Shown here: positions 3,243 through 23,322 of the stretch, piece by piece
How the letters are laid out: each line of letters starts with the position of its first letter
Numbering within the stretch: the first letter of the stretch is position 1
From: Candidatus Electrothrix aestuarii
Lineage (GTDB): Bacteria; Desulfobacterota; Desulfobulbia; Desulfobulbales; Desulfobulbaceae
Direction: 5' to 3'
Length of the DNA stretch: 64,000 nt
NCBI GenBank assembly: GCA_032595685.2
Contig: CP159373.1
Location: forward strand, 4,689,821-4,753,820
Notes under the pieces: model-generated
The model's database searches: none
What the model saw: only the letters and a program-made list of their open reading frames with translations
Told to the model about the DNA's origin: nothing
Translations under genes and position numbers: made by a program

Positions 3243-3310
3243 TTTTTTTATGTAAAATCCCCCGAACAGAAAGCACACTCGTCTCTCTGTTCGGGAATAA
3301 AAGCTTCTGC

Positions 3311-5325: not shown

Positions 5326-5360
5326 AATAGTTTATCTATAAACGAAGAGTTATGGTATTC

Positions 5361-5396
5361 AGGCCCGACAAAACGCTTCCCGCCTTCAGGCCCGCA
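5361..5396. promoter_or_regulatory. Direct repeat pair TTCAGGCCCG upstream of nifU
   Basis: The 10-bp word TTCAGGCCCG occurs twice, about 26 bp apart, in the divergent nifU/ppsA intergenic region. The spacing places both copies roughly on the same DNA face. They could be an operator for nifU; this is inference from position and repetition only. Confidence 0.3.
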
Positions 5397-5614
5397 TTTG
5401 CTCTGCAAGGAAGAAATCCTTGACAAATATTTCCATCAAAGTTACCTCAAAATGACAGGCCCTGCACGGGTTAAGGTTGACAACACGTTTTTTTTTTATA
5501 ATAGTTTTTCCTTTACACTACGGTAGACAATCTTGTACCGTGGAATACATTATTTATACACTGTTTACTTATCAGTTATTTAATACAAAGACCTGTGGTC
5601 TGGGAGATGAAAAC

Positions 5615-8059
<2,445 letters not shown>

Positions 8060-8098
8060 GCTGAAGATCTTCAGCTAACTCTTTGAGGAGTTAAGAAA

Positions 8099-8128
8099 GG
8101 GCGAATCGCGTAAGCGGTTCGTCCTTTT
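8099..8128 (+). terminator. Rho-independent terminator of ppsA
   Basis: GGGCGAATCGC, loop GTAA, GCGGTTCGTCC, then TTTT. It lies 40 bases after the ppsA stop. A perfect 18-bp palindrome (8059-8076) and a TAACTC/GAGTTA hairpin (8076-8093) precede it. Confidence 0.85.
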
Positions 8129-8194
8129 GTGTTTGGAATGAAGTTGGAGGCAAAGAGAAGCAGGTTTTACAGGCGCTTTCCCAGTAAAGCAGAA

Positions 8195-8587
8195 TCAGTC
8201 TTTGTCCTTCCTCTGAATATGTAAGATATTGCCCTGATCGGGAATCCGCGAAAAGATACGGTTAGCTATCTTAATCTTGCCAGAGAACAGCATCCTGGTC
8301 TGCCTCTCGTCTATGCCACACTTTTTGCCATGCTCCAGTGCTGCCTGCAGTGCCCGACAAAACTCCTCCCAGGCGGCCTGCTCTTTCTTCCTGGCCTGCT
8401 TTTCCCTCTCCTTGGCAAGGTCTCTTCTACGTTTTATCTTGAGAGTCTGATCAAGCATCCTCTGTAACTCTTCCAAAGGAACCGCCAGTTCCACAGAATC
8501 CGGGTCCTCGCTTGCTTTCTTGATAATATTCCTGACCAGCTCAATTACCTCATCTTCGTCCATGGGGAATTCGTCTTCCAGATCCAT
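8195..8587 (-). CDS. Hypothetical acidic/coiled-coil small protein, paralog A
   Basis: A 130-residue protein, not recognised. It begins MDLEDEFPMDEDEVIELVRN, followed by a predicted helical, charged middle (KREKQ/KKEQAAWEEF) and ends RIPDQGNILHIQRKDKD. It is a clear paralog of the next upstream gene: both share an EFP-x-DEDE start, L-x-x-MLDQ near residue 50, a basic helical core, and a terminal KDKD. No signal peptide or membrane segment. The two genes run leftward in tandem and the family has no function I can name. Confidence 0.6.
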   Translation of the reverse strand: MDLEDEFPMDEDEVIELVRNIIKKASEDPDSVELAVPLEELQRMLDQTLKIKRRRDLAKEREKQARKKEQAAWEEFCRALQAALEHGKKCGIDERQTRMLFSGKIKIANRIFSRIPDQGNILHIQRKDKD

Positions 8588-8631
8588 TGCAGCCTCTTTT
8601 TATCCTGCTGTTCGTTCCAGACAACACGCGA

Positions 8632-9024
8632 TCAATCTTTGTCCTTCTTCTGCACCTGTACTGTATTGTCCTGGCCAGCAAGCTGCGAAAAAACACGATC
8701 AGCCATCCCTGCCCTGCCTGATGCCACCAAAGGAGTATCGTTGTCGCGTATACCATGCTTCCTGTTGTACTCCCGCATACTTTGCTGCGCCGAACACAGT
8801 TCCGCCCAGGCAGCCTCGGCTTTTTCTCTGGCCTGCCTCTCTACTTCCCAGGCAGCAGCTTCAGCCTCTCTTGACTTGATAACCTGATCAAGCATCTTCT
8901 GCAATTTTGACATGGGGATCGGCGGATGAGGGAAATCCGGGTTATCGGTCATTCCCTTGATGATGTTCTTGGCTAACTCAATTATCTCATCTTCGTCGGT
9001 GGGGAATTCGTGTTTCAGGGTCAT
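8632..9024 (-). CDS. Hypothetical acidic/coiled-coil small protein, paralog B
   Basis: A 130-residue protein, paralog of the gene immediately downstream. The start is placed at 9024 (MTLKHEFPTDEDEI) because AAGGAGGT lies six bases upstream of it and because it then matches paralog A in length. The longer frame from 9042 would cover the ribosome-binding site. The middle is Ala/Glu/Arg-rich (EAEAAAWEVERQAREKAEAAW), probably one long helix; the C-terminus is VFSQLAGQDNTVQVQKKDKD. No known domain recognised. Confidence 0.6.
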   Translation of the reverse strand: MTLKHEFPTDEDEIIELAKNIIKGMTDNPDFPHPPIPMSKLQKMLDQVIKSREAEAAAWEVERQAREKAEAAWAELCSAQQSMREYNRKHGIRDNDTPLVASGRAGMADRVFSQLAGQDNTVQVQKKDKD

Positions 9025-9149
9025 TGTGGTACCTCCTTGCATTGAAGTGATATACTGTATGCTTTTGGTCTGTATGATTCCCTTCAGAATGCATGATAAC
9101 GAGAGAGGATCTTTTTTGCAACTACGGGAGGATGGAAAATGGTGATTTT

Positions 9150-9186
9150 AAAAAAGCCCTGAATCCGGGGGGACTCAGGGCTGAAC
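9150..9186 (-). terminator. Hairpin terminator reading leftward
   Basis: AGCCCTGA at 9155 pairs with TCAGGGCT near 9181 around a 12-base loop. On the minus strand the stem is followed by TTTTTTAAAA. It would end leftward transcripts entering from the lipoprotein gene at 9539-10390. Confidence 0.6.
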
Positions 9187-9312
9187 AACGATTGCCGTTA
9201 TTAGGGTCTGATATTCCTTGCAGCCGCTTACCCGGCATATTACCATAATAATCAGAAAGCAGAATAAAGTTATCAGAATTCAGCACACGATTTATAAGGA
9301 AGGAGGCAGGAT

Positions 9313-9534
9313 ATGCAGACAAAGAGCATCCCGGCTATTGAGGAATTTATCAGAGCATTGGAACCGGTTATCCGCCGTGTTGTCCGGGAGGAATTGAGCG
9401 CAATCGTTGAACAGCGACCGGAGGTCTTTCAGCTTGATGCTGACAGTCCTCTCTATACTGATCTGGCTGAACTCAAGAAGAGAAAAGATTGCGGAAAACT
9501 TGAGTTTGTTTCACACGAAGAGGTCTGGGAGTGA
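9313..9534 (+). CDS. Antitoxin-like small protein
   Basis: A 73-residue protein: MQTKSIPAIEEFIRALEPVI, then RRVVREELSAIVEQ, ending LAELKKRKDCGKLEFVSHEEVWE. The amphipathic N-terminal helix plus the short C-terminal KKRKD-x-GKLEFVSHEEVW segment resembles antitoxins normally followed by a RelE/ParE-type toxin; this resemblance is from memory. AAGGAAGGAGG precedes the ATG, so expression is likely. No toxin follows: the next gene converges on the opposite strand. It is either an orphan antitoxin or a relic. Confidence 0.5.
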   Translation: MQTKSIPAIEEFIRALEPVIRRVVREELSAIVEQRPEVFQLDADSPLYTDLAELKKRKDCGKLEFVSHEEVWE

Positions 9535-9538
9535 GCAG

Positions 9539-10390
9539 CTACCTATTATCAGCGGAACTTAACAGAACGTTTTCCTCGCTCGTTCCGCTACTTCCCGCTG
9601 AAACACTTCTCTCCTCAGTAACTGCAACAACCGTAGAACCAGGAGTTACTGAACCGGAATCCACCGCGCTGACAGCAGAAGAAGAGCTACCGGCAACTTC
9701 CTCCACCACCCCGTTATCAGAAGAAGTGGCTGCACTCGCCCGGCTAACCCTACGCACCACAACCCGTTGTGCATCCGCTACAACCTCGGCAGGCTCTTCA
9801 CTGTTTGCAACATCAAACCCAGAATCAGCCGCGACCTCATCAACCGCCGCAATCAAAGCCTGAACGGCCTCAGGATCAGCAGAACTCTCCTGATAATCCG
9901 CATACAGATCAATATCATCAGGCACGGCATAGCGGGTACGCACATCGGCTTCAGCCTCAGCCAGACTACTGCCCTGATACACCCTGCTCTGCACTGCGGT
10001 GGAAACCTGAGAGACAAACTCATGCTTTCCTGCCGGTGCTGTCAGGTGGATTACAGTATCCTTTTTCTTATTGTCTGGCTCAACCACCAAGGGGAATTGG
10101 CCTAAACTCTCTGCCGGAATACTCACCGAATAAGTACCATCGACATTGGTGCGTGCCGAAGGCTCATCAGGGTCACATTTGCCGTTGCCGGAGCTGTCCA
10201 CACAGACGGTCATGCCTGCTGGCAGGTTGCGGTCAACTTGGCCCGTGAGTTCAACCTTGGTGTTGTCTTCGGAACAGGCTGTGATAAAAAACAGCACCAG
10301 CACAAAAATTAGGGATTGGGAAAGACAACTGGAAATAATACGGGAACGCTTGGAGAAAAAATCTTGACGTAATTCATTTTCTGCGGACAT
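9539..10390 (-). CDS. Secreted lipoprotein with SdrD/CnaB-like N-terminal domain
   Basis: A 283-residue protein starting MSAENELRQDFFSKRSRI with a hydrophobic signal and lipobox FFITAC (lipidated Cys at about residue 38). The mature part opens with VELTGQVDRNLPAGMTVCVD, then DSSGNGKCDPDEPSARTNVDGTYSVSIP, a Ca-binding-like Ig/SdrD-B type fold seen in exported adhesion or stalk proteins. The C-terminal third is Ser/Ala/Val-rich and low complexity. The start at 10390 is chosen for the AGGAGGGATGTT leader; the frame is open to 10525 but that stretch holds a riboswitch. Expression is probably controlled by c-di-GMP. Function unknown, likely surface or attachment. Confidence 0.7.
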   Translation of the reverse strand: MSAENELRQDFFSKRSRIISSCLSQSLIFVLVLFFITACSEDNTKVELTGQVDRNLPAGMTVCVDSSGNGKCDPDEPSARTNVDGTYSVSIPAESLGQFPLVVEPDNKKKDTVIHLTAPAGKHEFVSQVSTAVQSRVYQGSSLAEAEADVRTRYAVPDDIDLYADYQESSADPEAVQALIAAVDEVAADSGFDVANSEEPAEVVADAQRVVVRRVSRASAATSSDNGVVEEVAGSSSSAVSAVDSGSVTPGSTVVAVTEERSVSAGSSGTSEENVLLSSADNR

Positions 10391-10418
10391 AACATCCCTC
10401 CTGGTGCAGAAATAAAAG

Positions 10419-10505
10419 TAGGTAACCCGGCCATCTCCCCACTGGAGATCCGTGGTTTTCCGAGACCGCCTCACGACGGTTGTGGCTTTATGCAACATTC
10501 CGGTT
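10419..10505 (-). promoter_or_regulatory. Cyclic-di-GMP-I (GEMM) riboswitch candidate
   Basis: Read on the minus strand this leader contains, in order: GCATAAAGCCACAACC; a stem ACCGTC-GTGA-GGCGGT closed by a GNRA tetraloop; AAAACCACGG; a second hairpin GGATCTCC-AGTG-GGGAGATGG; and the terminal GGCCGGGTTACC. Element order, tetraloop and the closing GCCGGGTTACC block match GEMM-I aptamers. It ends about 30 bases before the lipoprotein start. Ligand preference (c-di-GMP or cGAMP) cannot be settled by eye. On/off mode is also unclear. Confidence 0.75.
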
Positions 10506-10518
10506 CTAACCAGAAAGC

Positions 10519-10542
10519 AGGGCACTGATATATCTGTGCCCT
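10519..10542. other. 24-bp near-perfect palindrome upstream of the riboswitch
   Basis: AGGGCAC and GTGCCCT flank GATATATC. It could be a terminator of incoming transcription or a protein-binding site; no T-run follows on either strand. Confidence 0.4.
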
Positions 10543-10639
10543 TTGTTATGGAACCCTCAGTTAACTGCTGTAGTTTGCTTCTTCAATCTTTTGTCGAGTT
10601 TCGCCCCCGCTGAAGCAGCAGTCTTTATACAGGGGAACT

Positions 10640-11065
10640 AAACTACCCTCGTCAATAAGACGAGGGGTTTAAGAGGGGTCGATTTGAAATCGACTGTTGT
10701 CATCAAGAGGCTCGCCTTCCTGTTCCTCTATATATTTTTGAATCATTTCATCAGTGAAATTTCCAGAGCTTACAGCGAGATATCCTCTGGATCAAATTTT
10801 GCTGATATTTTGAGTCGGCCGGTATGATACAAACATATGGGCATGATCAGATGCAACTTTTCCGCTGATAATATCGAATTCATGCTCCATCGCTATCCGA
10901 CGCAAAATATCGCGCGTACGCACGGCGACCTCACCGGTCAAAACTTTCTTCCGGTATTTCGGTATCCAGACAAGATGTGCTTTTAAATCCGTTTTGGTAT
11001 GAGCTCCAATCCTGTAACGTCGCATAGCGACAACTGTAAACTTTTCTTCGCCTGAAGGCGAGGGA
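10640..11065 (-). mobile_element. Degenerate IS200/IS605-type element
   Basis: A TnpA pseudogene lies between two subterminal hairpins: CCCTCGTC/GACGAGGG (10646-10666) and TCGCCT/AGGCGA (about 11048-11060). The layout, one short tnpA between hairpins without inverted terminal repeats, is that of IS200. No tnpB accessory gene is present. Exact ends are not determined. Confidence 0.65.
10666..11025 (-). pseudogene. tnpA: IS200-family Y1 transposase TnpA, internally deleted
   Basis: From the ATG at 11025: MRRYRIGAHTKTDLKAHLVW, then IPKYRKKVL and the HUH motif DHAHMFVSYRP, up to NISKI. A TGA follows, and in the same frame the C-terminal end resumes as SRGYLAVSSGNFTDEMIQKY, then IEEQEGEPLDDNSRFQ, including the catalytic-type tyrosine. 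Relative to normal TnpA (about 130-150 residues) some 30 residues between SKI and SRGYL are missing and the expected Trp before SRGY is a TGA. The enzyme should be inactive. Confidence 0.75.
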
Positions 11066-11478
11066 TTTCAACCATCCCCGAAAGGGACATATAAAGCACT
11101 AGCGGGTGAGCACCGAAAGTTATCTGGTCATCATAATAGACCGCATTAAGAAGATTGTCGCAACGCTATGGGTAACTTTCTGTACGAGTGCCAACCCGGA
11201 CTTGAAGCATGCCTGAATTTCACAGTGCAAAAAAGATAACACATCGTGGTGCAAACGTTCCGTTCTTTGCGAAGTACGGCCCTTCAAGCAGTGTATTTTT
11301 CTTGATATCCTATCACTGTAACCTTTCAATTATTTTCCAGCACATGGAAGGGAAGGCAAAGGCTGGAGCCTGTTTTTTCTGAGAATTGACTGCTGTGTCC
11401 AGACGAATCAACACGATTCATGACGGTAACAAAACAAGCAATCTCCCAGGAAAAACCTCAACACAGGAGGAAAACACT
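11066..11478. other. Intergenic stretch before the VGNG array
   Basis: About 410 bases without a convincing gene. The only ORF (11120-11329, minus) has no family resemblance and no good ribosome-binding site. The part nearest 11479 is likely to hold the promoter of the VGNG array; TTGACT near 11386 is a possible -35 but no clear -10 follows. Confidence 0.4.
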
Positions 11479-11750
11479 ATGATGAAAAAAATAATTATCA
11501 GTGCAATCGCTGCACTTTCACTGGCCACAGCAAGTCCGCTGCTGGCGGAACCTACATCTCCGCAGGAAGGCCGAGAGGTCGGTAATGGAGTGATAGCTGT
11601 TGGTAATGGGGGGTGATACCCGACGAAGCTGGCACGGAGAAAGCAGGTGGCTGGGTGAGCAGTGGACTGGTCTTGAAAAACCCGTTTGACACTGAGCCAC
11701 TTGCAGGTGTCACTTCATTCAACGAAGGACCAGCTGACGATGCACCCTAA
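11479..11750 (+). pseudogene. VGNG-family small secreted protein 1, frameshifted at a G6 tract
   Basis: The ATG at 11479 follows CAGGAGGAAAACACT. Signal peptide: MMKKIIISAIAALSLATASP, then LLAE. The frame then gives VGNGVIAVGNGG and stops at 11614-11616. In another frame, beginning with GTG at 11613, it continues IPDEAGTEKAGGWVSSGLVL and runs to TAA at 11748-11750. The switch is at a run of six G (11608-11613); with four G the VGNG motif would read VGNGVI straight into the second half. Either a decayed first member or a site of slippage. As it stands it makes a 45-residue product. Confidence 0.65.
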
Positions 11751-11863
11751 ATATCATACATTTTCTGCCCCGACCTTGAAAGACCGGGCTATTTTCGGCA
11801 GTTCCTCCGGGACGCTGTTTTAACGGTGGGCAGAGGACGTATATTGATCAGGAGGAAATGAAT

Positions 11864-12208
11864 ATGTTGAAGAAAGTAATAATGACCAGTGCGGTCTTGA
11901 CGATATCCTTGGCTCTGGCTACTCCTCTCCTTGCTGGTAGCGGTGGAACAATTGTTGAAGCTGGCGCCCCCCTCCCCATAGATGGCGGTGGTGGTGGTAC
12001 AAGTGGCGGGGATGTTGGCAATGGCATAATCGTTGGCGTGAGGAGTGGAGATATAATCAAAGAGGATTATGTACAGCGAAACGGCAATGGAATCAGCGGA
12101 GGGAATCCATCTGTCTTGCAAGGCTTTATGAATGTTGGCAATGGCATCAGCGGAGGCACGCCTGTTCTCGCGGGAGCCATTACGGTTATTTCTGGTGGTG
12201 GTCAATAG
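11864..12208 (+). CDS. VGNG-family small secreted protein 2
   Basis: A 114-residue exported protein. The start at 11864 (MLKKVIMTSAVLTISLALAT, PLLAG) is homologous to the starts of all other members and has AGGAGGAAATGAAT in front; an ATG six bases earlier is less likely. A Sec signal peptide of about 22 residues ends at LLA-G. The mature part is Gly-rich: VEAGAPLPIDGGGGGTSGG, DVGNGIIVGVRSGD, NGNGISGGNPSVLQ, NVGNGISGGTPVLAGAITVI, SGGGQ. Three GNGI units recur. No Cys, no known domain. The 3' part is near-identical in DNA to members 3 and 6. Function unknown; periplasmic or secreted. Confidence 0.75.
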   Translation: MLKKVIMTSAVLTISLALATPLLAGSGGTIVEAGAPLPIDGGGGGTSGGDVGNGIIVGVRSGDIIKEDYVQRNGNGISGGNPSVLQGFMNVGNGISGGTPVLAGAITVISGGGQ

Positions 12209-12250
12209 CCTTTTCCTTGAATCTCAGCCTCATTTAACGGAGGAAATAAT
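12131..12250 (+). repeat. Direct repeat, copy 1 (VGNG C-terminus plus gap)
   Basis: About 115 bp covering codons for NVGNGISGGTPVLAGAITVI, SGGGQ, the stop, and the intergenic block to the next start. Near-identical copies lie at 12455-12567 and 13293-13405. They are large enough for recombination between array members. Confidence 0.8.
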
Positions 12251-12532
12251 ATGTTGAAGAAAATACTCATTCTAAGCGCAACACTGGCCTTCTCTCTCGC
12301 TCTATCTAGTCCTCTAATGGCTGGGACTACTGTTATAGGTAGTGGCCTGATCGAGGAGGAATCAAGTGGAGATGTTGGTAATGGGCTGAAAGCTCAATCA
12401 GTTATTCACGCTGGCAATTCCCTGACCAGTGATCGGAGTGATGGTGAGAGAGGGGATGTTGGCAATGGCATCAGCGGAGGCACGCCTGTTCTCTCGGGAG
12501 CCATTACGGTTATTTCTGGTGGTGGTCAATAG
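12251..12532 (+). CDS. VGNG-family small secreted protein 3
   Basis: A 93-residue protein: signal peptide MLKKILILSATLAFSLALSS, PLMAG, then TTVIGSGLIEEESSGDVGNG, LTSDRSDGERGDVGNGISGG and the shared C-terminus TPVLSGAITVISGGGQ. The gene follows member 2 after 42 bases; the gap is a conserved CTTTTCCTTGAATCTCAGCC block ending in CGGAGG before the ATG. The whole 3' end plus gap is a direct repeat of those in members 2 and 6, pointing to recent duplication or gene conversion. No enzymatic motif. Confidence 0.75.
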   Translation: MLKKILILSATLAFSLALSSPLMAGTTVIGSGLIEEESSGDVGNGLKAQSVIHAGNSLTSDRSDGERGDVGNGISGGTPVLSGAITVISGGGQ

Positions 12533-12567
12533 CCTTTTCCTTGAATCTCAGCCTCATTTAACGGAGG
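12455..12567 (+). repeat. Direct repeat, copy 2
   Basis: Near-identical to 12131-12250 and 13293-13405. With the 13293 copy the match extends about 37 bp further upstream, through the LTSDRSDGE codons. Confidence 0.8.
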
Positions 12568-12574
12568 TAATGAT

Positions 12575-12787
12575 ATGTTATTAAAGAAAATACTCATTCT
12601 GAATGCGGCATTTGCCTTATCTCTTGCTCTATCCACCCCTCTGTTGGCTGGCCCCACTCATGTGGGGAACGGTCTTGTTGAGGAGGAAAGTGATAGTGGA
12701 GGAAAAGACATTGGTAATGGGATAACTATTGATATGAAAAACAGAATTGCTAGCAGCGGTTCAGCTATACACGTTCGTAACGGCTAA
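12575..12787 (+). CDS. VGNG-family small secreted protein 4 (short)
   Basis: A 70-residue protein with signal peptide MLLKKILILNAAFALSLALS, TPLLAG, then PTHVGNGLVEEESDSGGKDI, GNGITIDMKNRIASSGSAIH, VRNG. It lacks the GGTPVLSGAITVISGGGQ tail of members 2, 3 and 6. It ends VRNG where a VGNG would be expected, so it may be truncated. CGGAGGTAATGAT precedes the start. The next member begins 18 bases downstream, consistent with one mRNA. Confidence 0.7.
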   Translation: MLLKKILILNAAFALSLALSTPLLAGPTHVGNGLVEEESDSGGKDIGNGITIDMKNRIASSGSAIHVRNG

Positions 12788-12805
12788 TTTAGTGGAGGAA
12801 ATGAT

Positions 12806-13042
12806 ATGTTAAAGAAAATACTCATTCTAAGCGCGACACTGGCATTCTCTCTTGCTCTATCCAGTCCCCTGATGGCTGAGTCTACTTATGTGGGTAACGG
12901 TCTTGTTGAGGCAGGAAGTGATAGTGGGGAAACGGCTCGCGGAGAAATGGATCTTGGCGGCTGGACTGATGTTGGTAGTGGGATAACGGTTAGTAACGAC
13001 TCCATCGTTGGTGTAAGAAGCAGCGACGCTGATCCTGAATAA
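12806..13042 (+). CDS. VGNG-family small secreted protein 5
   Basis: A 78-residue protein: signal MLKKILILSATLAFSLALSS, PLMAE; mature STYVGNGLVEAGSDSGETAR, GEMDLGGWTDVGSGITVSND, SIVGVRSSDADPE. The block RGEMDLGGW is shared with member 7 and VGVRS with member 2, so members look like shuffled modules. GGAGGAAATGAT precedes the ATG. C-terminus acidic (DADPE). No cysteine or catalytic motif. Confidence 0.7.
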   Translation: MLKKILILSATLAFSLALSSPLMAESTYVGNGLVEAGSDSGETARGEMDLGGWTDVGSGITVSNDSIVGVRSSDADPE

Positions 13043-13124
13043 ACCTCATAAAATCTCGCACCCAAGCTCCTGCTCGGGTGCCGCACAGCGAAGAAGCTCT
13101 GCTTCATTTTACGGAGAAAATAAT

Positions 13125-13370
13125 ATGTTGAAAAAAATAATCATTCTGAGCGCGACGCTTGTGCTCTCTCTTGCTCTAGCCAGCCCCCTGATGGCTGGGA
13201 CTACTTTTATAGGTAACGGCCTTGTTGAGGTGGGATCAAGTACTGATGTTGGCAATCCTCTGACCAGTGATCGGAGTGATGGTGAGAGCGGGAATGTTGG
13301 CAATGGCATCAGCGGAGGCACGCCTGTTCTCTCGGGAGCCATTACGGTTATTTCTGGTGGTGGTCAATAG
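13125..13370 (+). CDS. VGNG-family small secreted protein 6
   Basis: An 81-residue protein: signal MLKKIIILSATLVLSLALAS, PLMAG; mature TTFIGNGLVEVGSSTDVGNP, LTSDRSDGESGNVGNGISGG, TPVLSGAITVISGGGQ. From LTSDRSDGE to the stop, and on through the intergenic CTTTTCCTTGAATCTCAGCC block, the DNA is nearly identical to member 3. It differs mainly by the absence of the KAQSVIHAG segment. The leader is ACGGAGAAAATAAT. Confidence 0.75.
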   Translation: MLKKIIILSATLVLSLALASPLMAGTTFIGNGLVEVGSSTDVGNPLTSDRSDGESGNVGNGISGGTPVLSGAITVISGGGQ

Positions 13371-13405
13371 CCTTTTCCTTGAATCTCAGCCTCATTTAAC
13401 GGAGG
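13293..13405 (+). repeat. Direct repeat, copy 3
   Basis: Near-identical to the two copies in members 2 and 3, including the intergenic CTTTTCCTTGAATCTCAGCC and CATTTAACGGAGG. Confidence 0.8.
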
Positions 13406-13411
13406 TAAGAT

Positions 13412-13720
13412 ATGTTAAAGAAAATACTCATTCTGAATGCGGCGCTTGCCTTATCTCTTGCTCTATCCAACTCCCTGTTGGCTGGTGGGTTTACTGATAT
13501 AGGTAACGGCCTCGTCGAAAAGAAAAGTGATAGTGGGGGAACGACTCGCGGAGAAATGGATCTTGGCGGCTGGATATATGTTGGTAATGGCCTGACTCTT
13601 GATATGGAGAACGGAATTGCTATCAGCGGTGGCATAGTACATGTTGGCAATGGTATGAGTGGTGGTGAAAATACTCGACAGGATAACTGGTCAGGAGTCC
13701 GTCAAGGGAACCCCCTATAG
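13412..13720 (+). CDS. VGNG-family small secreted protein 7
   Basis: A 102-residue protein: signal MLKKILILNAALALSLALSN, SLLAG; mature part with four motif units (DIGNGLV, YVGNGLT, ENGIAISGG, HVGNGMSGG), the RGEMDLGGW block of member 5, and a distinct tail ENTRQDNWSGVRQGNPL. It is the last of the array; a terminator lies 135 bases downstream. CGGAGGTAAGAT precedes the ATG. The regular spacing of G-N-G units suggests a repetitive beta or extended fold; this is inference. Confidence 0.75.
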   Translation: MLKKILILNAALALSLALSNSLLAGGFTDIGNGLVEKKSDSGGTTRGEMDLGGWIYVGNGLTLDMENGIAISGGIVHVGNGMSGGENTRQDNWSGVRQGNPL

Positions 13721-13855
13721 AAACCGGCGAAGACAACACTCAGCCGCCCGATAGGGACAACAAACTGAATGGAATCATGTCTTCTGTAGGTAGATAACCT
13801 TCATATCTTTTCGTTAAAGAACGTGAAGACAACCTGTGGTAACTGTGATATTTAC

Positions 13856-13891
13856 AACCGGGCGTGTACTTTTTTCATTGCCCGGTTTTTT
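13856..13891 (+). terminator. Terminator at the end of the VGNG array
   Basis: AACCGGGC and GCCCGGTT flank a 16-base loop and are followed by a run of T. It lies 135 bases after member 7 and 52 bases before the next start. Confidence 0.8.
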
Positions 13892-13942
13892 ATTATCCTG
13901 AAGCCCCGCCAACTCATCAGCGATCATTTTGAGGGGAAATAT

Positions 13943-14518
13943 ATGAAGACAGTCTTTTTGCTTATCGTTACGGTATGTTTCCTGACTTTTCTGGCAGGCT
14001 GTGCAGTGGTCACCTCAGAAAACCTCATCGGTGACACAGCGGTTCAGCTCTCCCCTGAGGCATGGAATGGGACATGGAAAAACGAGGAAACCGCACTGCA
14101 ATTCAAGGTTATTGATCCTGAAAACGGCCTGCTGAAAATCGCCTGGTTCGAAGAGAAAGACAACGAATTACAACCGGAGTCTCTCACGGTGCAAATCAGA
14201 AAGGGCGAGCAATGGGAATACCTTAACCTCCTTGAAGGTTCGCTTTATAACGACCTTGCACTTGAAAAGTATTGTTGGGGACGAATCGAAAAGGAGGAAA
14301 AGCGTCTTTTGTTTTGGCTACCCAACCCTGAACGATTCGAACTTGCTGTTCAATCCGATATGCTGCAAGGAAAGGTCATTAAAACAAAAAAAGAAAACTC
14401 TCCGAGCACGCATGTACGACTGAATGCATCATCCCAGAAGCTTATACAGCAGGTAGAGTCCAACGGCGGTGATTATTTTCTCTGGGATAAACCACTAACC
14501 TTTATTAAAATTGACTGA
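13943..14518 (+). CDS. Lipoprotein, unknown function
   Basis: A 191-residue protein. Start at 13943 (MKTVFLLIVTVCFLTFLAGC) with GAGGGG eight bases upstream; the signal peptide ends in the lipobox LAGC with Cys at residue 20, so it is an outer- or inner-membrane-anchored lipoprotein. The mature part contains LSPEAWNGTWKNEETALQFK, then EDKDNELQPESL-like charged beta-rich segments, reminiscent of small lipoproteins that measure or bind ligands, but I recognise no family. The frame is open from 13823, but that part covers the preceding terminator. The nitroreductase gene follows after 8 bases. Confidence 0.65.
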   Translation: MKTVFLLIVTVCFLTFLAGCAVVTSENLIGDTAVQLSPEAWNGTWKNEETALQFKVIDPENGLLKIAWFEEKDNELQPESLTVQIRKGEQWEYLNLLEGSLYNDLALEKYCWGRIEKEEKRLLFWLPNPERFELAVQSDMLQGKVIKTKKENSPSTHVRLNASSQKLIQQVESNGGDYFLWDKPLTFIKID

Positions 14519-14526
14519 GATATAGG

Positions 14527-15063
14527 ATGTTATTCAAAGATATAGTTACTCATCGTCAGAGCATAAGAGGATATAGAGACAAACCAGTTGAAAGGGAAAA
14601 AATTGAGCTATGCCTTGAAGCCGCTCGATTGGCTCCTTCAGCTTGCAACTCGCAGCCTTGGTATTTCATGATTGTTGATCAACCGGAACTCAGAAAACAG
14701 GTTGCTGAACATATTATCAAAGGTGTTGTTCCCATAAACCGGTGGGCAAATCAAGCGCCAGTCCTGGTCATAATCCTCACAGAAAAACCAAAATTGGTTA
14801 CACAGGTAGGTGGTTTTCTTAAAAGGAAAGAATATAACTTAATAGACTTAGGAATAACCGCTGAACATTTTTGCCTCCAAGCCACGGAACTTGGACTTGG
14901 TACATGTATGCTCGGATGGTTCAATGAAAAAGGCATTAAGAAGGCTCTTAATATCCCGACAAAAAAACGCATCGGATTAGTCATTACAGTTGGATATCAT
15001 GACGAGAACAAAGACAGGAAGAAAATCAGAAAAAGTATGGATGAAATCAGAGAATATCTTTGA
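14527..15063 (+). CDS. Nitroreductase-family FMN protein
   Basis: A 178-residue nitroreductase-like flavoprotein: N-terminal IVTHRQSIRGYRDKPVEREK (RxSxRxY, FMN phosphate binding), ARLAPSACNSQPWYFMIV (FMN-binding and active-site region), and C-terminal LGLGTCMLGWFNEKGIKKAL with IGLVITVGYHDE. The length is typical of short single-domain members. Such enzymes reduce nitro or quinone compounds with NAD(P)H; the substrate here is unknown. It is likely cotranscribed with the lipoprotein gene. Its end abuts sequence resembling the right end of the integrative element, so it may be old cargo. Confidence 0.8.
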   Translation: MLFKDIVTHRQSIRGYRDKPVEREKIELCLEAARLAPSACNSQPWYFMIVDQPELRKQVAEHIIKGVVPINRWANQAPVLVIILTEKPKLVTQVGGFLKRKEYNLIDLGITAEHFCLQATELGLGTCMLGWFNEKGIKKALNIPTKKRIGLVITVGYHDENKDRKKIRKSMDEIREYL

Positions 15064-15076
15064 GATAGAGGCAAGT

Positions 15077-15172
15077 TGCCCCCATAAGCGAAACAGTGGA
15101 GCACAGTGTAAGTAAGGACTTGAAGGTCAAAAACAAAAAAAGGGACTTAGCATAAAATACGCTAAATCCCTA
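15077..15172. other. Decayed copy of the element's right end, outside attL
   Basis: TGCCCCCATAAGCGAAA, then CAGTGGAGCACAGTG, then an A-rich tract and hairpin (15142-15170) resemble, in the same order, 28719-28806 inside the element's right end. It suggests an earlier element occupied the same tRNA site. Confidence 0.5.
15128..15170 (-). terminator. Hairpin terminator (old tRNA-Lys tail)
   Basis: On the minus strand GGGATTTAGC pairs with GCTAAGTCCC and is followed by TTTTTTT. It parallels the active terminator downstream of tRNA-Lys at 28763-28805, with several base differences. Confidence 0.65.
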
Positions 15173-15230
15173 TATATATATTGGTGGGCCGTGAAGGATT
15201 CGAACCTTCGACCAATTGATTAAGAGTCAA
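15173..15230. repeat. attL: 58-bp direct repeat of the tRNA-Lys 3' part
   Basis: Identical to 28808-28865, from TATATATATTGGTGGGCC through the T arm and anticodon arm to GAGTCAA. After it, sequences diverge (TCCAGG here, CTGCTC in the intact tRNA). This is the left attachment site of the integrated element. Confidence 0.92.
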
Positions 15231-15332
15231 TCCAGGACACCTTTCACACATTTTCACACAACCTCACTTCTGTCTTTTTTAGCATTGACTTTCAACAAGT
15301 TGACTGGTAACCTACTCTCACTATGAATCACC

Positions 15333-15378
15333 TGCCCCCACTTATCATACTGGAAAAAGTGGGGGCAGAGTGGGGGCT
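15333..15378. promoter_or_regulatory. Candidate integrase arm-type sites, left end
   Basis: TGCCCCCACTT (15333-15343), AAGTGGGGGCA (15357-15367) and AGTGGGGGCT (15369-15378): an inverted pair plus a direct copy, just upstream of the integrase start. The same set recurs at 28719-28759 at the other end. Position and repetition fit integrase or directionality-factor binding. Confidence 0.5.
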
Positions 15379-15399
15379 GGAATTCCGGGAGTTGAAACA

Positions 15400-16629
15400 A
15401 TGTCACAATACCAGAGTACGAAATTTCCAGGGGTACGAACAAGAGAACACGCCACCCGAAAGCACGGGATCAGGCCCGACCGCTATTTTTTAATACGCTA
15501 CCAGACACAAGGCAAGCGAAAAGAAGAAGGTCTTGGCTGGGAAAGCGAGGGCTGGTCAGCGGAAAAGGCTGCATTGAAACTGGCAGAACTAAAACAGGCA
15601 GCTAAAACCGGAGAAGGCGCAAAACGTCTATCTGAGAAGAGAGAAGCACAAAAAAAAGCTGAAAAAGAAGCCCTCAAGAAAAAGCAGGATGAGCAACGCA
15701 AGGCGGTTACCTACGAACAATACTTCAATGAACATTATCTGCCGGGGCAAACCAAAAAGGAATCAACACTGAAACCTGAAATAAGCCTGCATAAGAACTG
15801 GATACTTCCCAGCATAGGCCGGATTCCTGTTAGGGATATAGTAGAGCTGCATATCAAACAATTAAGCCTTTCCATGAATAAGGGCGGTAAATCCCAAAGA
15901 ACCATTCAATACGCTCATGCTTCGGTCAGAATGGTGCTGGAACACGCAAGAAAAAGCAGCTACTATCAAAGAAACAATCCCATAAGAAGCCTGTCAAAAT
16001 CCGACAAACCAAAATTCGACAACAAACGGGTACGCTTTTTCACCCACTCGGAAGCGGAAGACCTCCTTGAACGCCTGAAAGGGAAAAGCAAAGACGTTCA
16101 CGACATGACCTTGCTTTCTCTCCATTGTGGGTTACGGGCCGGTGAGATATTCAAACTGACTTGGCAATATGTTGACCTTGCAAACCGACAGGTGACGTTA
16201 ACAGAAACGAAATCCGGCAAGGATAGAACTGTTCCCATGACCGGGGCAATTTCTGAAATGTTTGAAGCCCGGAAGCAAGGCAGCAGAAACGAGCTTGTAT
16301 TTCCAGACAAGAAAGGCAGTAAACGGGTGGCAATGAGCAAGACCTTTGAAAGAACCGTTGACGAAATGGGACTCAACGAAGGTGTTACCGACCGCAAGAA
16401 CAAGCTGGTTTTTCATTCCTGCCGTCATACCTGTGCATCATGGTTGGTTCAGGCCGGGGTGCCCTTGTTGACTATAAAAGAGATATTAGGGCATTCAACT
16501 ATAGCCCTGACAGAGCGGTACAGTCACCTTGCACCGGATGGAACACGGGCCGCTTTGCAGGTTATGGAGAAGGCGATACAGGAGAGCAGGACGGAAAGCA
16601 ATGTTCAGCAATTGGTGAACGTCGGGTGA
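15400..16629 (+). CDS. int: Tyrosine recombinase / integrase
   Basis: A 409-residue integrase that would catalyse site-specific recombination at tRNA-Lys. N-terminal arm-binding-type domain (TKFPGVRTREHATRKHGI, then RYFLIRYQTQGKRKE), a Lys/Glu-rich linker, a SAM-like core-binding domain (~110-200), and a catalytic domain with all residues: R in HCGLRAGEIF, K in ETKSGKDRT, H-x2-R in FHSCRHTCASW, H in LGHSTIALTERY, and the nucleophile Y in RYSHL. The start is the ATG at 15400 with GGGAG about 10 bases upstream; an upstream GTG at 15370 would overlap the GGGGGC sites. It lies next to attL, as usual for tRNA-targeting elements. Confidence 0.93.
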   Translation: MSQYQSTKFPGVRTREHATRKHGIRPDRYFLIRYQTQGKRKEEGLGWESEGWSAEKAALKLAELKQAAKTGEGAKRLSEKREAQKKAEKEALKKKQDEQRKAVTYEQYFNEHYLPGQTKKESTLKPEISLHKNWILPSIGRIPVRDIVELHIKQLSLSMNKGGKSQRTIQYAHASVRMVLEHARKSSYYQRNNPIRSLSKSDKPKFDNKRVRFFTHSEAEDLLERLKGKSKDVHDMTLLSLHCGLRAGEIFKLTWQYVDLANRQVTLTETKSGKDRTVPMTGAISEMFEARKQGSRNELVFPDKKGSKRVAMSKTFERTVDEMGLNEGVTDRKNKLVFHSCRHTCASWLVQAGVPLLTIKEILGHSTIALTERYSHLAPDGTRAALQVMEKAIQESRTESNVQQLVNVG

Positions 16630-16737
16630 AAGAAAATTTCTGAACAATTTTTTTAGCACACAGAAACAGGAAATTACGGATATTATGCAAAAAACATGCT
16701 CGTTGTCAATTGACATGGGCGAGCGGAGGGTTTAAAT

Positions 16738-16769
16738 TGATACTTGACTCGCCACAATTGGCGGGTATC
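16738..16769. promoter_or_regulatory. Nested inverted repeat, operator candidate
   Basis: Outer arms TGATAC/GTATCA and inner arms CGCC/GGCG around ACAATT. The symmetry suggests a dimeric repressor site; it could equally be an RNA hairpin. Confidence 0.4.
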
Positions 16770-16882
16770 ATCCAACAGGATGAAGTACCAGAAGTAAGCA
16801 GGACAGCAAAACCAAAAATCGAATATTCAATGAAGCAGTAACACGGGGGCGAAATCCTCCGAACCTCTGCTGTATCGCTGAA

Positions 16883-16932
16883 GCGGTGTTGAACCTTTTT
16901 ATTACAAAAGGGGGCAACACCGCTTTTTTTTT
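16883..16932 (+). terminator. Rho-independent terminator
   Basis: GCGGTGTTG (16883-16891) pairs with CAACACCGC (16915-16923) and is followed by nine T. Confidence 0.8.
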
Positions 16933-17186
16933 GGCCTATAGAAAAATGCCTAACCACATGAGAGGGGGCGATATGTCAAGAAAATCAGTGAAAACTCCAT
17001 GTACCCGGTAAAGGTTACGGCAGAAAAAAGCAGTATGATCCTATGAACATAAAAAAAAGCGGAACAGCAACAGGCTGATTTCCCCTGAGCGTATTTTCAC
17101 GCTGACAGGATTATTGTGTTCACAGCGCGGCTGTGCTCATTGGGGATAGTTGCGCCGTTTCTTTAAGATGACGATGAGAATAATTC

Positions 17187-17486
17187 ATGAGTAATAAAAT
17201 ACAGATAGAAGTAAGTCAGGAAGAAAAACAGATTGATCTTTCAGCATTTGCGGAAAAATGGCCGTCTGCCTTTGTGGAGCGTTCCAAACTCTCCGAGTTT
17301 TCGGGCGGTGTGCTGAACGGTCGGACTATGGCGAACCTTGATTCTAAAGGAACCGGAATCAAGGGAAGGGTCAAGATTGGAGATCGAAAAGTAATATACC
17401 CTGTCCATGAGGTTATTTCATGGCTTGAAGCGAGGGCAAGTTTGCCAAAGAAAAGCAAATGCGGACAGGATGGGGAAAGAACATGA
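17187..17486 (+). CDS. Small DNA-binding-type protein (excisionase/AlpA-like candidate)
   Basis: A 99-residue protein starting MSNKIQIEVSQEEKQIDLSA. The segment RSKLSEFSGGVLNGRTMANL, then DSKGTGIKGRVKIGDRKVIY and PVHEVISWLEARA, has the shape of a winged-helix excisionase/AlpA domain: a helix-turn-helix choosing a target, a beta wing, and a terminal V-x-x-WLE helix. It lies between integrase and Prim-Pol, where satellites keep their regulator. The assignment is by layout and pattern; no exact family is recognised. Confidence 0.55.
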   Translation: MSNKIQIEVSQEEKQIDLSAFAEKWPSAFVERSKLSEFSGGVLNGRTMANLDSKGTGIKGRVKIGDRKVIYPVHEVISWLEARASLPKKSKCGQDGERT

Positions 17487-17498
17487 GGGCAAAAGAAA

Positions 17499-17529
17499 AG
17501 CCGCGTAATCCTGGGCAGGATCAGCGGCT
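17499..17529 (-). terminator. Strong hairpin, terminator-like on the minus strand
   Basis: AGCCGC-GTA-ATCCTG-GG-CAGGAT-CA-GCGGCT. On the minus strand a TTTTCTTTT tract follows. There is no annotated leftward gene for it to serve, so it may instead act in the mRNA between the small regulator and Prim-Pol. Confidence 0.45.
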
Positions 17530-17736
17530 AAAACTGAGATATAACCGAGCAAGGTTAAACAAACACATTATACCCCTATTCAGACGAAGTATCAACAGGA
17601 AAGCGCGTTCCGAGGCTGAGAGCCTGCCAGCAAGACAGCCCCGAAACGCTCACCCTATCTCTTTACTGAATCAGGTTACTCTCTGTTTATTCGTCTTTGC
17701 CCGTCTTGTCAAAGGTAACTCTTCCGGGGGTGCGCT

Positions 17737-18633
17737 ATGGACTTGAAGAAACAGGCCGCACAGCTCCTGCAAATGGGCTATGAGCCCATACCGATTAAGC
17801 CGAACGAAAAGTACCCAACCGTCAAGAACTGGCAGAATGCCGACTGTGCGCAGTTAGTTGAAAGCTGGCCCAAAGATTACGGAATAGGGCTACGGACAGG
17901 ACAAAAGGTCACGGCCATTGATATTGATGTCTATCATAAGGGTTTGGTTGACTGGGCAGTCAATCAGTTTCGTTCTCTTGTGGACGGGTCTTTATTGTGC
18001 AGAGTCGGCCAGCCGCCCAAGACCTTGATTCCGGTTTCCTGTGAGGGTGTCGAGAAAAAGTTCACATCCAATAAATGGGTGGATCAAAACGGCACAATCA
18101 ATCAGATAGAGATACTGAGCCACGGGCAACAGTTTGTTGCCTTCGGTATCCATCCCGGCACCGGGAAACCGTATGAATGGGACGGCGACCTGTTGGCCCA
18201 TTCTTTGCCGACTATACGACGCAGTGACCTTGAGACAGTGTTTCAGGGGTTCGACAATCAAGCCGCTGAAAAGGGCTGGCATAACCTCACACAGGCAGCG
18301 GAAACGGCAAAGGAGGTGACGGCCACCCGGTCACGGAAGAACAGCTCAGGAGATGCGCCGGGCGATGTATACAACCGCTCTGTGCCCCTGGAAACCGTGC
18401 TGGAGCATTGCGACTGGACACATTGCCAGGGCAATTACTGGACACGTCCGGGCAAAAGCAAGGGCATATCAGGGGCTGTTCATGGTGGTGTGCTGTACTG
18501 CTTCACAAGCTCCACCTGTCTGGATGCGGAGCAATGCCATGATGCCTTTGAAATACTGTCCCGCTATGAGTTCAGCGGTGATAAATCAGCCTGTTCTCTG
18601 GCTCTGCGGCAGGAAATGGAGAAGGTGTGTTGA
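17737..18633 (+). CDS. Bifunctional primase-polymerase (Prim-Pol) domain protein
   Basis: A 298-residue protein with an N-terminal Prim-Pol-type domain: LLQMGYEPIPIKPNEKYPTV, KNWQNA, WPKDYGIGLRTGQKVTAIDI followed by DV (metal-binding DxD), and GEQ-like later SHGQQFVAFGIHPGTGKPYE (histidine motif), as in PF09250-type primases of plasmids and satellites. The C-terminal part (TVLEHCDWTHCQGNYWTRPG, AVHGGVLYCFTSSTCLD) resembles the zinc-associated DNA-binding tail found after such domains. It would prime replication of the excised element. Its stop overlaps the helicase start as TGATG. Confidence 0.8.
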   Translation: MDLKKQAAQLLQMGYEPIPIKPNEKYPTVKNWQNADCAQLVESWPKDYGIGLRTGQKVTAIDIDVYHKGLVDWAVNQFRSLVDGSLLCRVGQPPKTLIPVSCEGVEKKFTSNKWVDQNGTINQIEILSHGQQFVAFGIHPGTGKPYEWDGDLLAHSLPTIRRSDLETVFQGFDNQAAEKGWHNLTQAAETAKEVTATRSRKNSSGDAPGDVYNRSVPLETVLEHCDWTHCQGNYWTRPGKSKGISGAVHGGVLYCFTSSTCLDAEQCHDAFEILSRYEFSGDKSACSLALRQEMEKVC

Positions 18634-19796
18634 TGCTGCCCGGAACTGATACAAAAGCCTTTAAAGATGAGGCACGGAAGGCAAAGAGAGGGGAGCGGAC
18701 AAAGGGGCGCAGTAGCGAAAAGAAGGCCGAAAAGAGCGGCGGAATTCTGGACGCGCTGCAATCGGCTGTATCCATTACACCCCGTGAAATAAAGTGGTTA
18801 TGGGAACCCATGCTTGCTGTCGGAAAATTTCATCTGCTTGCGGCCAGAGGCGGTTCAGGGAAAACGAGCATAGCCTGTGACCTTGCCGCAAGGGTGACCA
18901 CGGGAGGACTTTTCCCCATGTCGAAAACAGAAAGGTTTCCACCGGGGGCCGTGCTTTTCGTCACCACGGAAGATGACCCGGAAGATACCCTATTGCCCCG
19001 GTTTTTGGCAGCGGGTGGAGATCGGGAAAAGTTGAGCTTTCTTACAAGTTCTGCTCATCACCTTGACCTGAACGCAAGGCCCGAAGAACTGAAAACATTA
19101 GTCAGCAGTATTCCCGGCCTTTCTCTGATTGTTCTTGACCCGGTAACCAGCATGACCGGCGACGCGAACACCCACATTGACAGCAACGTCAAAAGGCTTG
19201 CCGGGGTGCTGGCTGGCATAGCCATGAACAGCGGTCTTGCGATTCTGGGCATTATTCATTTCCGCAAAGGTGACCCCACAGCACAGGGACAGAACCTTGT
19301 TGATATGGTGACCGGTTCCGCAGGATGGGTGAACAGCGCACGGATAGCCCTTGCCTGCTCTGTTGACGACAAGAGCGAAAGAGGATATTTCGGTGTTATC
19401 AAATCCAATATAGGGCCGAAGGATTACACCCTTGAATACAGAACAACGGTCAAGAATGGCGTGGTGTGCGTTGAATACCTGGACATGCAGCAGAACAGCA
19501 TTGAACGGATTTTTCGGCAGGATGCGGCGCGGGAGAATAAGACCGTGAAAGAGGAAAAGCTGAACCGGGCGGCTAACCGTTACGGCGAGTTTTTCACAGA
19601 GCACGGTCTTGAACCAGTGCTACAGAACGATGTGCGGAAATACGTTAAAGAGATGCTGGGCGAGCGGATAACCGACAGCGAGCTGAGAGAGGTTGAACGG
19701 CAGCACGGATATACAAGCAAAGCGAGAGGCAAAGGGGGCAAATGGCTTATGCACCCTCCGGGCTGCAAGTGTGAAAAATGCTCTTCTAAGGTATAA
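18633..19796 (+). CDS. RepA/RecA-like replicative helicase ATPase
   Basis: A 387-residue ATPase of the AAA_25/RepA type. Walker A: LAARGGSGKTSIACDLAARV; Walker B: LSLIVLDPVTSM; plus the sensor region ILGIIHFRKG. It is preceded by a Lys/Arg-rich N-terminus and followed by a C-terminal winged-helix-like segment ending in a CKCEKC cluster (PPGCKCEKCSSKV). The start at 18633 is chosen because of the TGATG coupling; GTG 18627 is possible. Together with Prim-Pol it forms a self-contained replication module. A cluster of CTTAAC motifs, probable origin, follows directly. Confidence 0.82.
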   Translation: MLPGTDTKAFKDEARKAKRGERTKGRSSEKKAEKSGGILDALQSAVSITPREIKWLWEPMLAVGKFHLLAARGGSGKTSIACDLAARVTTGGLFPMSKTERFPPGAVLFVTTEDDPEDTLLPRFLAAGGDREKLSFLTSSAHHLDLNARPEELKTLVSSIPGLSLIVLDPVTSMTGDANTHIDSNVKRLAGVLAGIAMNSGLAILGIIHFRKGDPTAQGQNLVDMVTGSAGWVNSARIALACSVDDKSERGYFGVIKSNIGPKDYTLEYRTTVKNGVVCVEYLDMQQNSIERIFRQDAARENKTVKEEKLNRAANRYGEFFTEHGLEPVLQNDVRKYVKEMLGERITDSELREVERQHGYTSKARGKGGKWLMHPPGCKCEKCSSKV

Positions 19797-20215
19797 ACAC
19801 CCTGTAAAACTTAACACTTGTTTTGTAGCGGATAAACGGCAAGATAAAACCCGTTAAGTCTTAACCCCCCTCTTGATTCTAAATAAGGAAATCAAGTCTT
19901 GCTGAACAGGGGGTAAAAACTTAACGCTCTATATCTAACTAATATTATATTATTATTTAAGTGTTAAGTAGAGGAGGGTCTATTTGTCTTAGGAAGCTGT
20001 TTTTCAGAACGTGAGCCGATAAAACGACAGTGGGCTATTCCTTGCCTACAGTCGGCATATTTCAGGCGGGTAATGATACTTTTCAGCGATTTTCAGGCAA
20101 TCAGGCAGCAAAGAACAGCAACAGTATGACATTTTCACGGCAGGGAAAGGCATTATGCGGAATCGGTCAGGTAACGGAAAAAACAATTTTCGGACACGGT
20201 GCAGGGGGTGCAGCG
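19797..20215. other. Candidate replication origin with iteron-like motifs
   Basis: Non-coding. ACTTAACACTT (19809-19819) is matched exactly in reverse by AAGTGTTAAGT (19959-19969). Further GTTAAG/CTTAAC words occur at 19853, 19860 and 19920. Between lie CTTGATT/AATCAAG and CCCCCC/GGGGG inverted arms and an AT-only run (about 19938-19960). A location straight after the rep genes fits an origin. Confidence 0.55.
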
Positions 20216-20770: not shown

Positions 20771-20786
20771 GAGACGTTCGGAGACA

Positions 20787-21002
20787 ATGACAGGTGAAGC
20801 GATGAAATCAACAAAGAAGCCGGGCAGGCCCACGGAATACGACCCGGCCCGAAATGCGATGGTGAAACAGCTTTACGCTTTGGGTGCGGTTGATGATGAG
20901 GCCATTAAAGCTTTGGGCGTGGCTTTGTCGGGTTGCAACGAAGGAGGAAGAGCACGGAAAAGTGTTGCCCACTGGCCGGAAACAATTTATTCTGCGGGCT
21001 GA
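20787..21002 (+). pseudogene. Truncated second TerS-like N-terminus
   Basis: A 71-codon ORF. KSTKKPGRPTEYDPARNAMV, KQLYALGAVDDEAIKALGVA parallels the TerS N-terminus residue for residue (GRPTEYDP; ATDNEVIEALSVA), then breaks into an unrelated tail (LSGCNEGGRARKSVAHWPET). It begins 17 bases after the first TerS stop. It could be a remnant of a tandem duplication, or a short DNA-binding protein that competes with TerS. Confidence 0.6.
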
Positions 21003-21051
21003 ACCTTCACGCATACTCTGAGTGCTCTATTTTATCGTAAAAAAGGATCAA

Positions 21052-23316: not shown

Positions 23317-23322
23317 ATATAA
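23317..23322. repeat. Target-site duplication ATATAA, left copy
   Basis: Matches 24689-24694 on the other side of the IS4-type element. Confidence 0.8.

What the first reader, a model, noticed from the sequence alone, without database searches (positions are those of the whole stretch)
11479..13720. Tandem array of seven small secreted VGNG-repeat proteins, apparently undescribed
Seven consecutive genes encode 45-114-residue proteins with near-identical Sec signal peptides (MLKKILIL..ALSLALS.PLLAG) and Gly-rich mature parts built from V-G-N-G-(I/L) units and exchangeable blocks (RGEMDLGGW, LTSDRSDGE, GGTPVLSGAITVISGGGQ). No cysteine, no catalytic motif, no processing enzyme or dedicated exporter next to them. 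Strong ribosome-binding sites and a closing terminator suggest high, joint expression. The repeats could build an extracellular or periplasmic repetitive polymer, or be diversified secreted peptides. I do not recognise the family.
Basis: partly seen in the sequence, partly recalled or inferred. Interest (0 to 1): 0.8.

Follow-up and report, generated by a model that had tools for sequence, protein, structure and literature searches.

The report
Array of seven small exported proteins
A sediment bacterium, probably a cable bacterium, carries seven side-by-side genes for small, probably exported, glycine-rich proteins of a family for which no relative was found outside its genus; the genes look real and have been shuffled in blocks, but what they do is still a guess.

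Summary
The observation largely holds. Seven tandem ORFs (window 11479-13720, +) have ribosome-binding sites, near-identical Sec-type signal peptides and acidic, Gly-rich, Cys-free mature parts with [VI]GNG[ILV] units. No other ORF of this design was found in the 64 kb. Codon comparisons show protein-level constraint. The C-terminal blocks of g2, g3 and g6 have no synonymous difference, so blocks were exchanged or duplicated recently. Correction: g1 is not an intact 45-residue gene; its frame breaks at a run of six G and continues, conserved, in another frame, and a standalone 89-residue relative lies in genome G003. Credible family members: 2 of 8 genus genomes. All other matches of the 195-relative and 257-genome order searches look unrelated; none of 394 other phylum-sample genomes matched at E 0.001. 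Pfam and NCBIfam: nothing above a cut-off; best PHROG E 0.059. A very close genome, G007, lacks it. So: an accessory orphan family, probably of a cable bacterium (inference), unlikely to be a conserved fibre part. AlphaFold gave no fold (pLDDT 42, 35). Best reading: disordered, exported sticker-and-spacer matrix proteins. Rivals: nearly neutral expansion; antagonistic peptides.

The parts
11479..11750 (+). g1: first family member, frame-broken. The first frame, 11479-11616 (45 aa), holds the signal peptide and two VGNG units. The conserved rest lies in another frame, 11613-11750.
   Evidence: downstream frame matches the G003 homologue over EKAGxWxSSGLVxxNPxxxxPLxGxTSxN, pS 0.66 vs pN 0.23
11864..12208 (+). 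g2: 114-aa protein with signal peptide; carries the SGGTPVLAGAITVISGGGQ C-terminus
12251..12532 (+). g3: 93-aa protein with signal peptide; LTSDRSDGE block and the GGTPVLSGAITVISGGGQ C-terminus
12575..12787 (+). g4: 70-aa protein with signal peptide
12806..13042 (+). g5: 78-aa protein with signal peptide; RGEMDLGGW block
13058..13081 (+). hairpin between g5 and g6, no T run on the + strand; possible attenuator or processing site (guess)
   Evidence: fold of 13050-13090, z -4.05; single copy in the window at up to 3 mismatches
13125..13370 (+). g6: 81-aa protein with signal peptide; 3' end and following spacer nearly identical to g3
13412..13720 (+). g7: 102-aa protein with signal peptide; RGEMDLGGW block, three [VI]GNG units
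13856..13891 (+). intrinsic terminator-like hairpin (AACCGGGC/GCCCGGTT plus T run) closing the array
   Evidence: fold of 13845-13900, z -4.56; read directly; not listed by the scan, whose loop limit is 8

Best explanation
A lineage-specific tandem family of probably Sec-exported, acidic, glycine-rich, low-complexity proteins. Each is made with a cleavable signal peptide (inferred from sequence) and released into the periplasm, with no dedicated exporter recognised beside it. There it most likely acts as an intrinsically disordered 'sticker-and-spacer' chain: short hydrophobic [VI]GNG[ILV] stickers separated by hydrophilic Ser/Asp/Glu spacers associate with each other and with the envelope or extracellular matrix. 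Tandem duplication raises the dose, and exchange of blocks between neighbours varies the spacing and the C-terminus. Shown: ORFs, ribosome-binding sites, coding constraint, block exchange or duplication, accessory distribution. Inferred: export, cleavage, disorder. Guessed: the matrix or envelope role.
For: Signal-peptide-like N-termini conserved at protein level: pooled pS 0.49 vs pN 0.17 over 15 pairs of g2-g7, g1 left out. Mature parts: pI 4.1-5.4, 19-31% Gly, no Cys. Mature blocks are also constrained: my recount of 9 of the 12 block pairs gives pS 0.48 and pN 0.23; the three left out are the recently exchanged ones, where the only differences (2, 2 and 1) are non-synonymous. Stickers far exceed shuffles. 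The two AlphaFold jobs gave no order (mean pLDDT 42.3 and 35.1), which is compatible with disorder. Ribosome-binding sites on all seven and a terminator-like hairpin.
Against: The alignments given to AlphaFold held only 8 and 7 rows, so low pLDDT may reflect shallow data and not disorder. Unit spacing is irregular (27 and 21 in g7; 13, 12 and 16 in g3), so no regular solenoid or fibre repeat is supported. No credible member in 6 of 8 genus genomes, including the very close G007, so it is dispensable for the genus. One of seven copies is frame-broken. Nothing here tests location or assembly.
Confidence: 0.38

Rival explanations
1. A young, nearly neutral or selfish gene expansion: an orphan small exported protein was duplicated in a rearrangement hot spot and is drifting, with one copy already broken.
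For: Only a single standalone homologue found elsewhere (G003), absent from the very close genome G007, g1 frame-broken, g4 ends inside the block that runs on in g7.
Against: pN is below pS in the signal peptides (pooled), in 9 of 12 mature block pairs and after the break in g1, and all seven keep a ribosome-binding site.
Confidence: 0.25
2. Diversified secreted antagonistic or signalling peptides. A conserved leader carries shuffled mature cores that act on competing or sibling cells, with block exchange as the source of variety.
For: Conserved leader with shuffled cores; accessory position beside a tyrosine recombinase and transposase genes; the [VI]GNG[VL] core recalls the YGNGV box of class IIa bacteriocins (the box is recalled).
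Against: Mature parts are acidic (pI 4.1-5.4), whereas such peptides are usually cationic (recalled). No Cys; no double-glycine leader; no immunity gene or peptidase-bearing transporter recognised among the neighbours scanned; the Pfam scans gave no bacteriocin family.
Confidence: 0.22
3. g1 is not broken but decoded by ribosomal slippage, or switched on and off by length changes of its six-G run (phase variation), giving short and long forms.
For: The conserved continuation lies in a frame that can be reached by slipping at the G run.
Against: A mononucleotide run of six is short. Assemblies of cable-bacterium genomes from long reads have needed polishing (passages of PMC12093952 and PMC11247825), so an assembly error or a plain mutation is simpler.
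Confidence: 0.1
4. A component of the cable-bacterium conductive fibre or ridge skeleton.
For: A probably exported, repetitive protein in a genome that is probably a cable bacterium (size match of G007 to Ca. Electrothrix scaldis).
Against: No credible member in 6 of 8 genomes of the genus, among them the single-contig G006 and G007 (their weak matches look unrelated). No Cys for metal or cofactor binding.
Confidence: 0.04

Closest known systems
Standalone small protein with signal peptide in genome G003 (L023:1459-1728, -), same genus
   Same: Signal peptide, VGNGV unit, GxWxSSGL motif; 50% identical to g1 read across its frame break; profile E 6.7e-7 with a profile built without it
   Different: Single gene, no array; the 18 kb around it (L048) gave no DNA match to the window at E 1e-5, and its neighbours differ
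Class IIa (pediocin-like) bacteriocins (features recalled)
   Same: Small exported peptides with a (Y/V)GNG(V/L)-like motif
   Different: No Cys pair, acidic, several motif copies per chain, no immunity gene recognised; no Pfam bacteriocin match
Curli-type functional amyloids, CsgA/CsgB (features recalled)
   Same: Small exported Gly- and Asn-containing repeat proteins
   Different: No SxxxxxNxxxxxQ unit in any of the seven, no CsgA/B match, no csg genes among the neighbours scanned. CsgG-domain proteins occur in 7 of 8 genus genomes, with and without the array, none near it.
Conserved-leader, variable-core peptide arrays in general (recalled)
   Same: Constant leader and shuffled mature parts in tandem genes
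   Different: Here the leader is a Sec-type signal peptide and the core shows net constraint (pN below pS in 9 of 12 block pairs), with no modifying enzyme recognised nearby

Membership tests
Class IIa bacteriocin | YGNGV box followed by Cys-x4-Cys | tested here: not met
   No Cys in any of the seven; Pfam scans without a bacteriocin family
Class IIa bacteriocin | Immunity gene and dedicated transporter next to it | tested here: inconclusive
   Nearest neighbours are a 192-aa lipoprotein-like ORF with no family, a nitroreductase and a tyrosine recombinase; none resembles a transporter, but an immunity gene of unknown family could be missed
Class IIa bacteriocin | Antibacterial activity | not testable with these tools
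   needs expression and assay
Curli-type functional amyloid | SxxxxxNxxxxxQ repeats | tested here: not met
   0 of 7 proteins hold one such unit; no Pfam curlin match for the sequences scanned
Curli-type functional amyloid | csg operon in place | tested here: not met
   No csg gene among the neighbours scanned. CsgG-domain proteins elsewhere in 7 of 8 genus genomes; in G000 none lies near the array
Curli-type functional amyloid | Fibre formation, dye binding | not testable with these tools
   wet experiment
Phage or defence protein | Match to a PHROG or PADLOC model | tested here: not met
   Best PHROG E 0.059 over the seven proteins; PADLOC 0 matches for the five array proteins given, g2, g3, g5, g6 and g7 of the seven
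Sec signal peptide protein | Basic n-region, hydrophobic core, AxA-like cleavage site | tested here: met
   By a simple rule scan, written after seeing the array: all seven, and no other ORF of 40-130 aa with an ATG start and ribosome-binding site in the window; SignalP was not available

The most novel reading that the evidence does not exclude
A new, lineage-specific class of self-associating exported polymer: seven sticker-and-spacer proteins, reassorted by recombination between neighbouring genes, form an envelope or sheath layer in some cable-bacterium strains, with the first gene switchable through its G run.
Probability: 0.12. Interest if true: 0.75.

Novelty: new variant of a known kind. 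Interest (0 to 1): 0.42.

Why it matters
If expressed, this is an exported protein family with no described relative found here that has expanded within one genus, with traces of block exchange between neighbours. If the host is a cable bacterium, it offers strain-variable candidates for sheath, slime or matrix material of these filaments (extracellular sheaths are named in an abstract passage of PMC12093952), and it shows that exported proteins differ between very close genomes. The result also warns against treating it as a conductive-fibre part, since related genomes do without it.

Tried and rejected
Relatives outside the genus. A single-protein search of 195 relatives (13 genomes at E 0.1 or better, the window's own included) and a profile search of 257 order genomes (11 at E 0.05 or better, the window's own and G003 included) gave weak hits. 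I first translated 12 of them, but three minus-strand hits (L051, L052, L014) were read there on the wrong strand. One search repeats this on the right strand for all 22 weak hits (9, G006 included; 13) and for three weak hits in G006 and G007. None looks related: signal peptides of larger or other proteins, low-complexity stretches, or frames with stops. Only one (L010) holds an IVGNG string, in a frame with a stop, without a signal peptide. In a sample of 395 phylum genomes only the window's own matched at E 0.001. Two scans of genome contigs and one of viral contigs found nothing. The phage search used g6 only and the plasmid search g7 only; neither matched.

Link to the downstream lipoprotein-like gene: rejected, because orthologues in G006 and G005 (76% and 72%) stand in genomes without a credible array member; none was seen in the ORF lists around them.

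Regular solenoid fold: not supported; irregular spacing, two AlphaFold models without structure. I did not run fold search on models of that quality.

A profile for the PDB gave only one match at E 0.1 (gp41-5), taken as chance. Literature: searches were the searches; their listings showed no paper on this family. The first returned cable-bacterium papers, the others unrelated ones. Five papers were seen only as passages (PMC10926707, PMC11976967, PMC13047784, PMC12093952, PMC11247825); all others only as a listing.
Full report
1. What is there. Between 11479 and 13720 on the + strand lie seven consecutive ORFs of 45, 114, 93, 70, 78, 81 and 102 residues. Each start follows a GGAG-type ribosome-binding site. 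A rule scan of both strands of the whole window for ORFs of 40-130 aa with an ATG start, a ribosome-binding site and a signal-peptide-like N-terminus returned nine rows, which are these seven genes (two of them with an alternative start), and nothing else. The rule was written after seeing the array, so this shows that the array stands out; it is not a significance test. DNA repeats confirm shared 5' blocks (five copies of 124 nt) and shared 3' blocks with the following spacer (three copies of 174 nt).

2. Chance or real. The [VI]G[NS][GP][ILVMG] unit occurs 17 times in the mature parts, against a mean of 0.44 and a maximum of 4 in 2000 shuffles of the same letters. Over the first 25 codons of g2-g7 (g1 left out), 15 pairs pooled give pS 0.49 and pN 0.17. 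For 12 block pairs of the mature parts, chosen by eye, the pool is pS 0.29 and pN 0.16. In three of them (C-terminal blocks of g2, g3 and g6) there is no synonymous change and 2, 2 and 1 non-synonymous ones. Leaving those out, my recount from the printed values gives pS 0.48 and pN 0.23, and pN is below pS in each of the nine. The pairs are not independent.

3. Block exchange. g3 and g6 differ at pS 0.55 in the signal peptide but at none of about 29 synonymous sites in the LTSDRSDGE...ISGGGQ block. g2 against g3 and g2 against g6 show none of about 21 each. The spacers after g2, g3 and g6 are also nearly identical, so the exchanged or duplicated piece runs from the gene's 3' end to the next ribosome-binding site. 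g4 stops inside a block that continues in g7, and the ribosome-binding site of g5 aligns by eye with Ser-Gly-Gly codons of that block.

4. The first gene is broken. In genome G003 a standalone gene encodes a relative of 89 residues counted from its MLKKK start (profile E 6.7e-7 from a profile without it). g1 matches it over its length only if reading passes from its first frame into another one at a run of six G (50% identity). Over the 29 codons after the break that I compared, pS is 0.66 and pN 0.23, so that stretch was under protein-level constraint. Whether this is a mutation, an assembly error, a switch or slippage cannot be told here.

5. Distribution. Genus: 4 of 8 genomes had a match at E 10 or better, of which two are credible (G000 and G003); G006 and G007 gave only matches with E above 0.3. 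Order: 11 of 257 genomes had a match at E 0.05 or better. Apart from the window's genome and G003 these are nine, with E 0.002-0.05, G006 among them at 0.011. I read all nine, the 13 outside hits of the 195-genome search and three weak hits in G006 and G007: none looks related (which mends strand errors). Phylum sample: 1 of 395 at E 0.001, the window's own. No family hit reached a cut-off in Pfam or NCBIfam; the best PHROG E is 0.059; PADLOC had none for five of the seven proteins. The PDB gave one match at E 0.1.

6. Setting. Genome G007 carries near-identical core genes and is colinear with the window at about 97-98% from 3304 to 10039, apart from about 4.5 kb in place of window 9185-9542. 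In the 60 kb of G007 compared, nothing matches window 10040-27097 except four short pieces and a 375-nt transposase piece at 24828-25201. Over the whole of G007 the array, the lipoprotein-like gene and the recombinase (E limit 1e-30) were not found, and the nitroreductase only as 30-35% homologues. The stretch holds an IS200-type transposase fragment, the array, a lipoprotein-like ORF, a nitroreductase, a tyrosine recombinase, a primase-like gene, an AAA protein and further transposases. In G007 the right-hand side, from about 27.1 kb of the window, lies inverted. The array therefore sits in an accessory segment at a rearrangement. G007 has 5,089,909 bases in one contig; the published closed genome of Candidatus Electrothrix scaldis has 5.09 Mbp (passage of PMC10926707). 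That is my only ground for calling the host a cable bacterium, and it is an inference.

7. Structure and transcription. AlphaFold on mature g7 (8 rows) and mature g2 (7 rows) gave mean pLDDT 42.3 and 35.1 with no secondary structure. This fits disorder but also fits shallow alignments. A terminator-like hairpin with a T run closes the array (13856-13891; z -4.56), another strong hairpin without a T run stands between g5 and g6 (z -4.05), and the g1-g2 spacer stretch folded (11765-11815) shows nothing unusual (z 1.02). Promoter-like sites were no more frequent than in shuffles.

8. How it probably works. The proteins should leave the cytoplasm by Sec and be freed in the periplasm (established for this kind of N-terminus; not tested). 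Acidic, Gly-rich, Cys-free chains with spaced hydrophobic [VI]GNG[ILV] stickers most resemble disordered self-associating matrix proteins. I put this at 0.38, with a nearly neutral expansion at 0.25 and antagonistic peptides at 0.22. A fibre-core role is disfavoured by the distribution. Class IIa bacteriocins and curli share only superficial features: the Cys pair, the curlin repeat and the csg genes were tested and not met; an immunity gene could not be excluded.

9. Verdict. A well-bounded array of an undescribed family seen only in this genus: new as a family, ordinary in type (tandem small exported paralogues in an accessory segment). Function open.

Noticed in passing
window 10418-10496 (-): c-di-GMP-I riboswitch (50.9 bits) just upstream of a lipoprotein-like ORF (9539-10525, likely start near 10390). 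The stretch also matches at 82% identity in G003 (L047:10981-11093).
   Followed up: partly
window 15076-15230 and 28719-28865: A stretch just before the tyrosine recombinase gene (15370) repeats the 3' half of the tRNA-Lys gene at 28817-28892 and its 3' flank (83% overall, the tRNA part identical), as expected of an attachment site of an integrated element; the intact tRNA and its flank look undisturbed when compared with G007.
   Followed up: partly
window 10040-27097: Largely missing from the corresponding 60 kb of the very close genome G007, and the flank on the right is inverted there: an accessory segment at a rearrangement.
   Followed up: partly
window 8195-8587 and 8632-9042 (-): Two neighbouring paralogous ORFs, about 66% alike in DNA (seen when the G007 copies are matched to the window), with no Pfam family.
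   Followed up: no
window 12770-12810: The ribosome-binding site of g5 aligns with Ser-Gly-Gly codons of the repeat block in g7, as if a gene boundary had arisen inside the coding block (by eye).
   Followed up: no
G006:C1:2245704-2250868: Cluster of five CsgG-domain matches within about 5 kb in a related genome.
   Followed up: no
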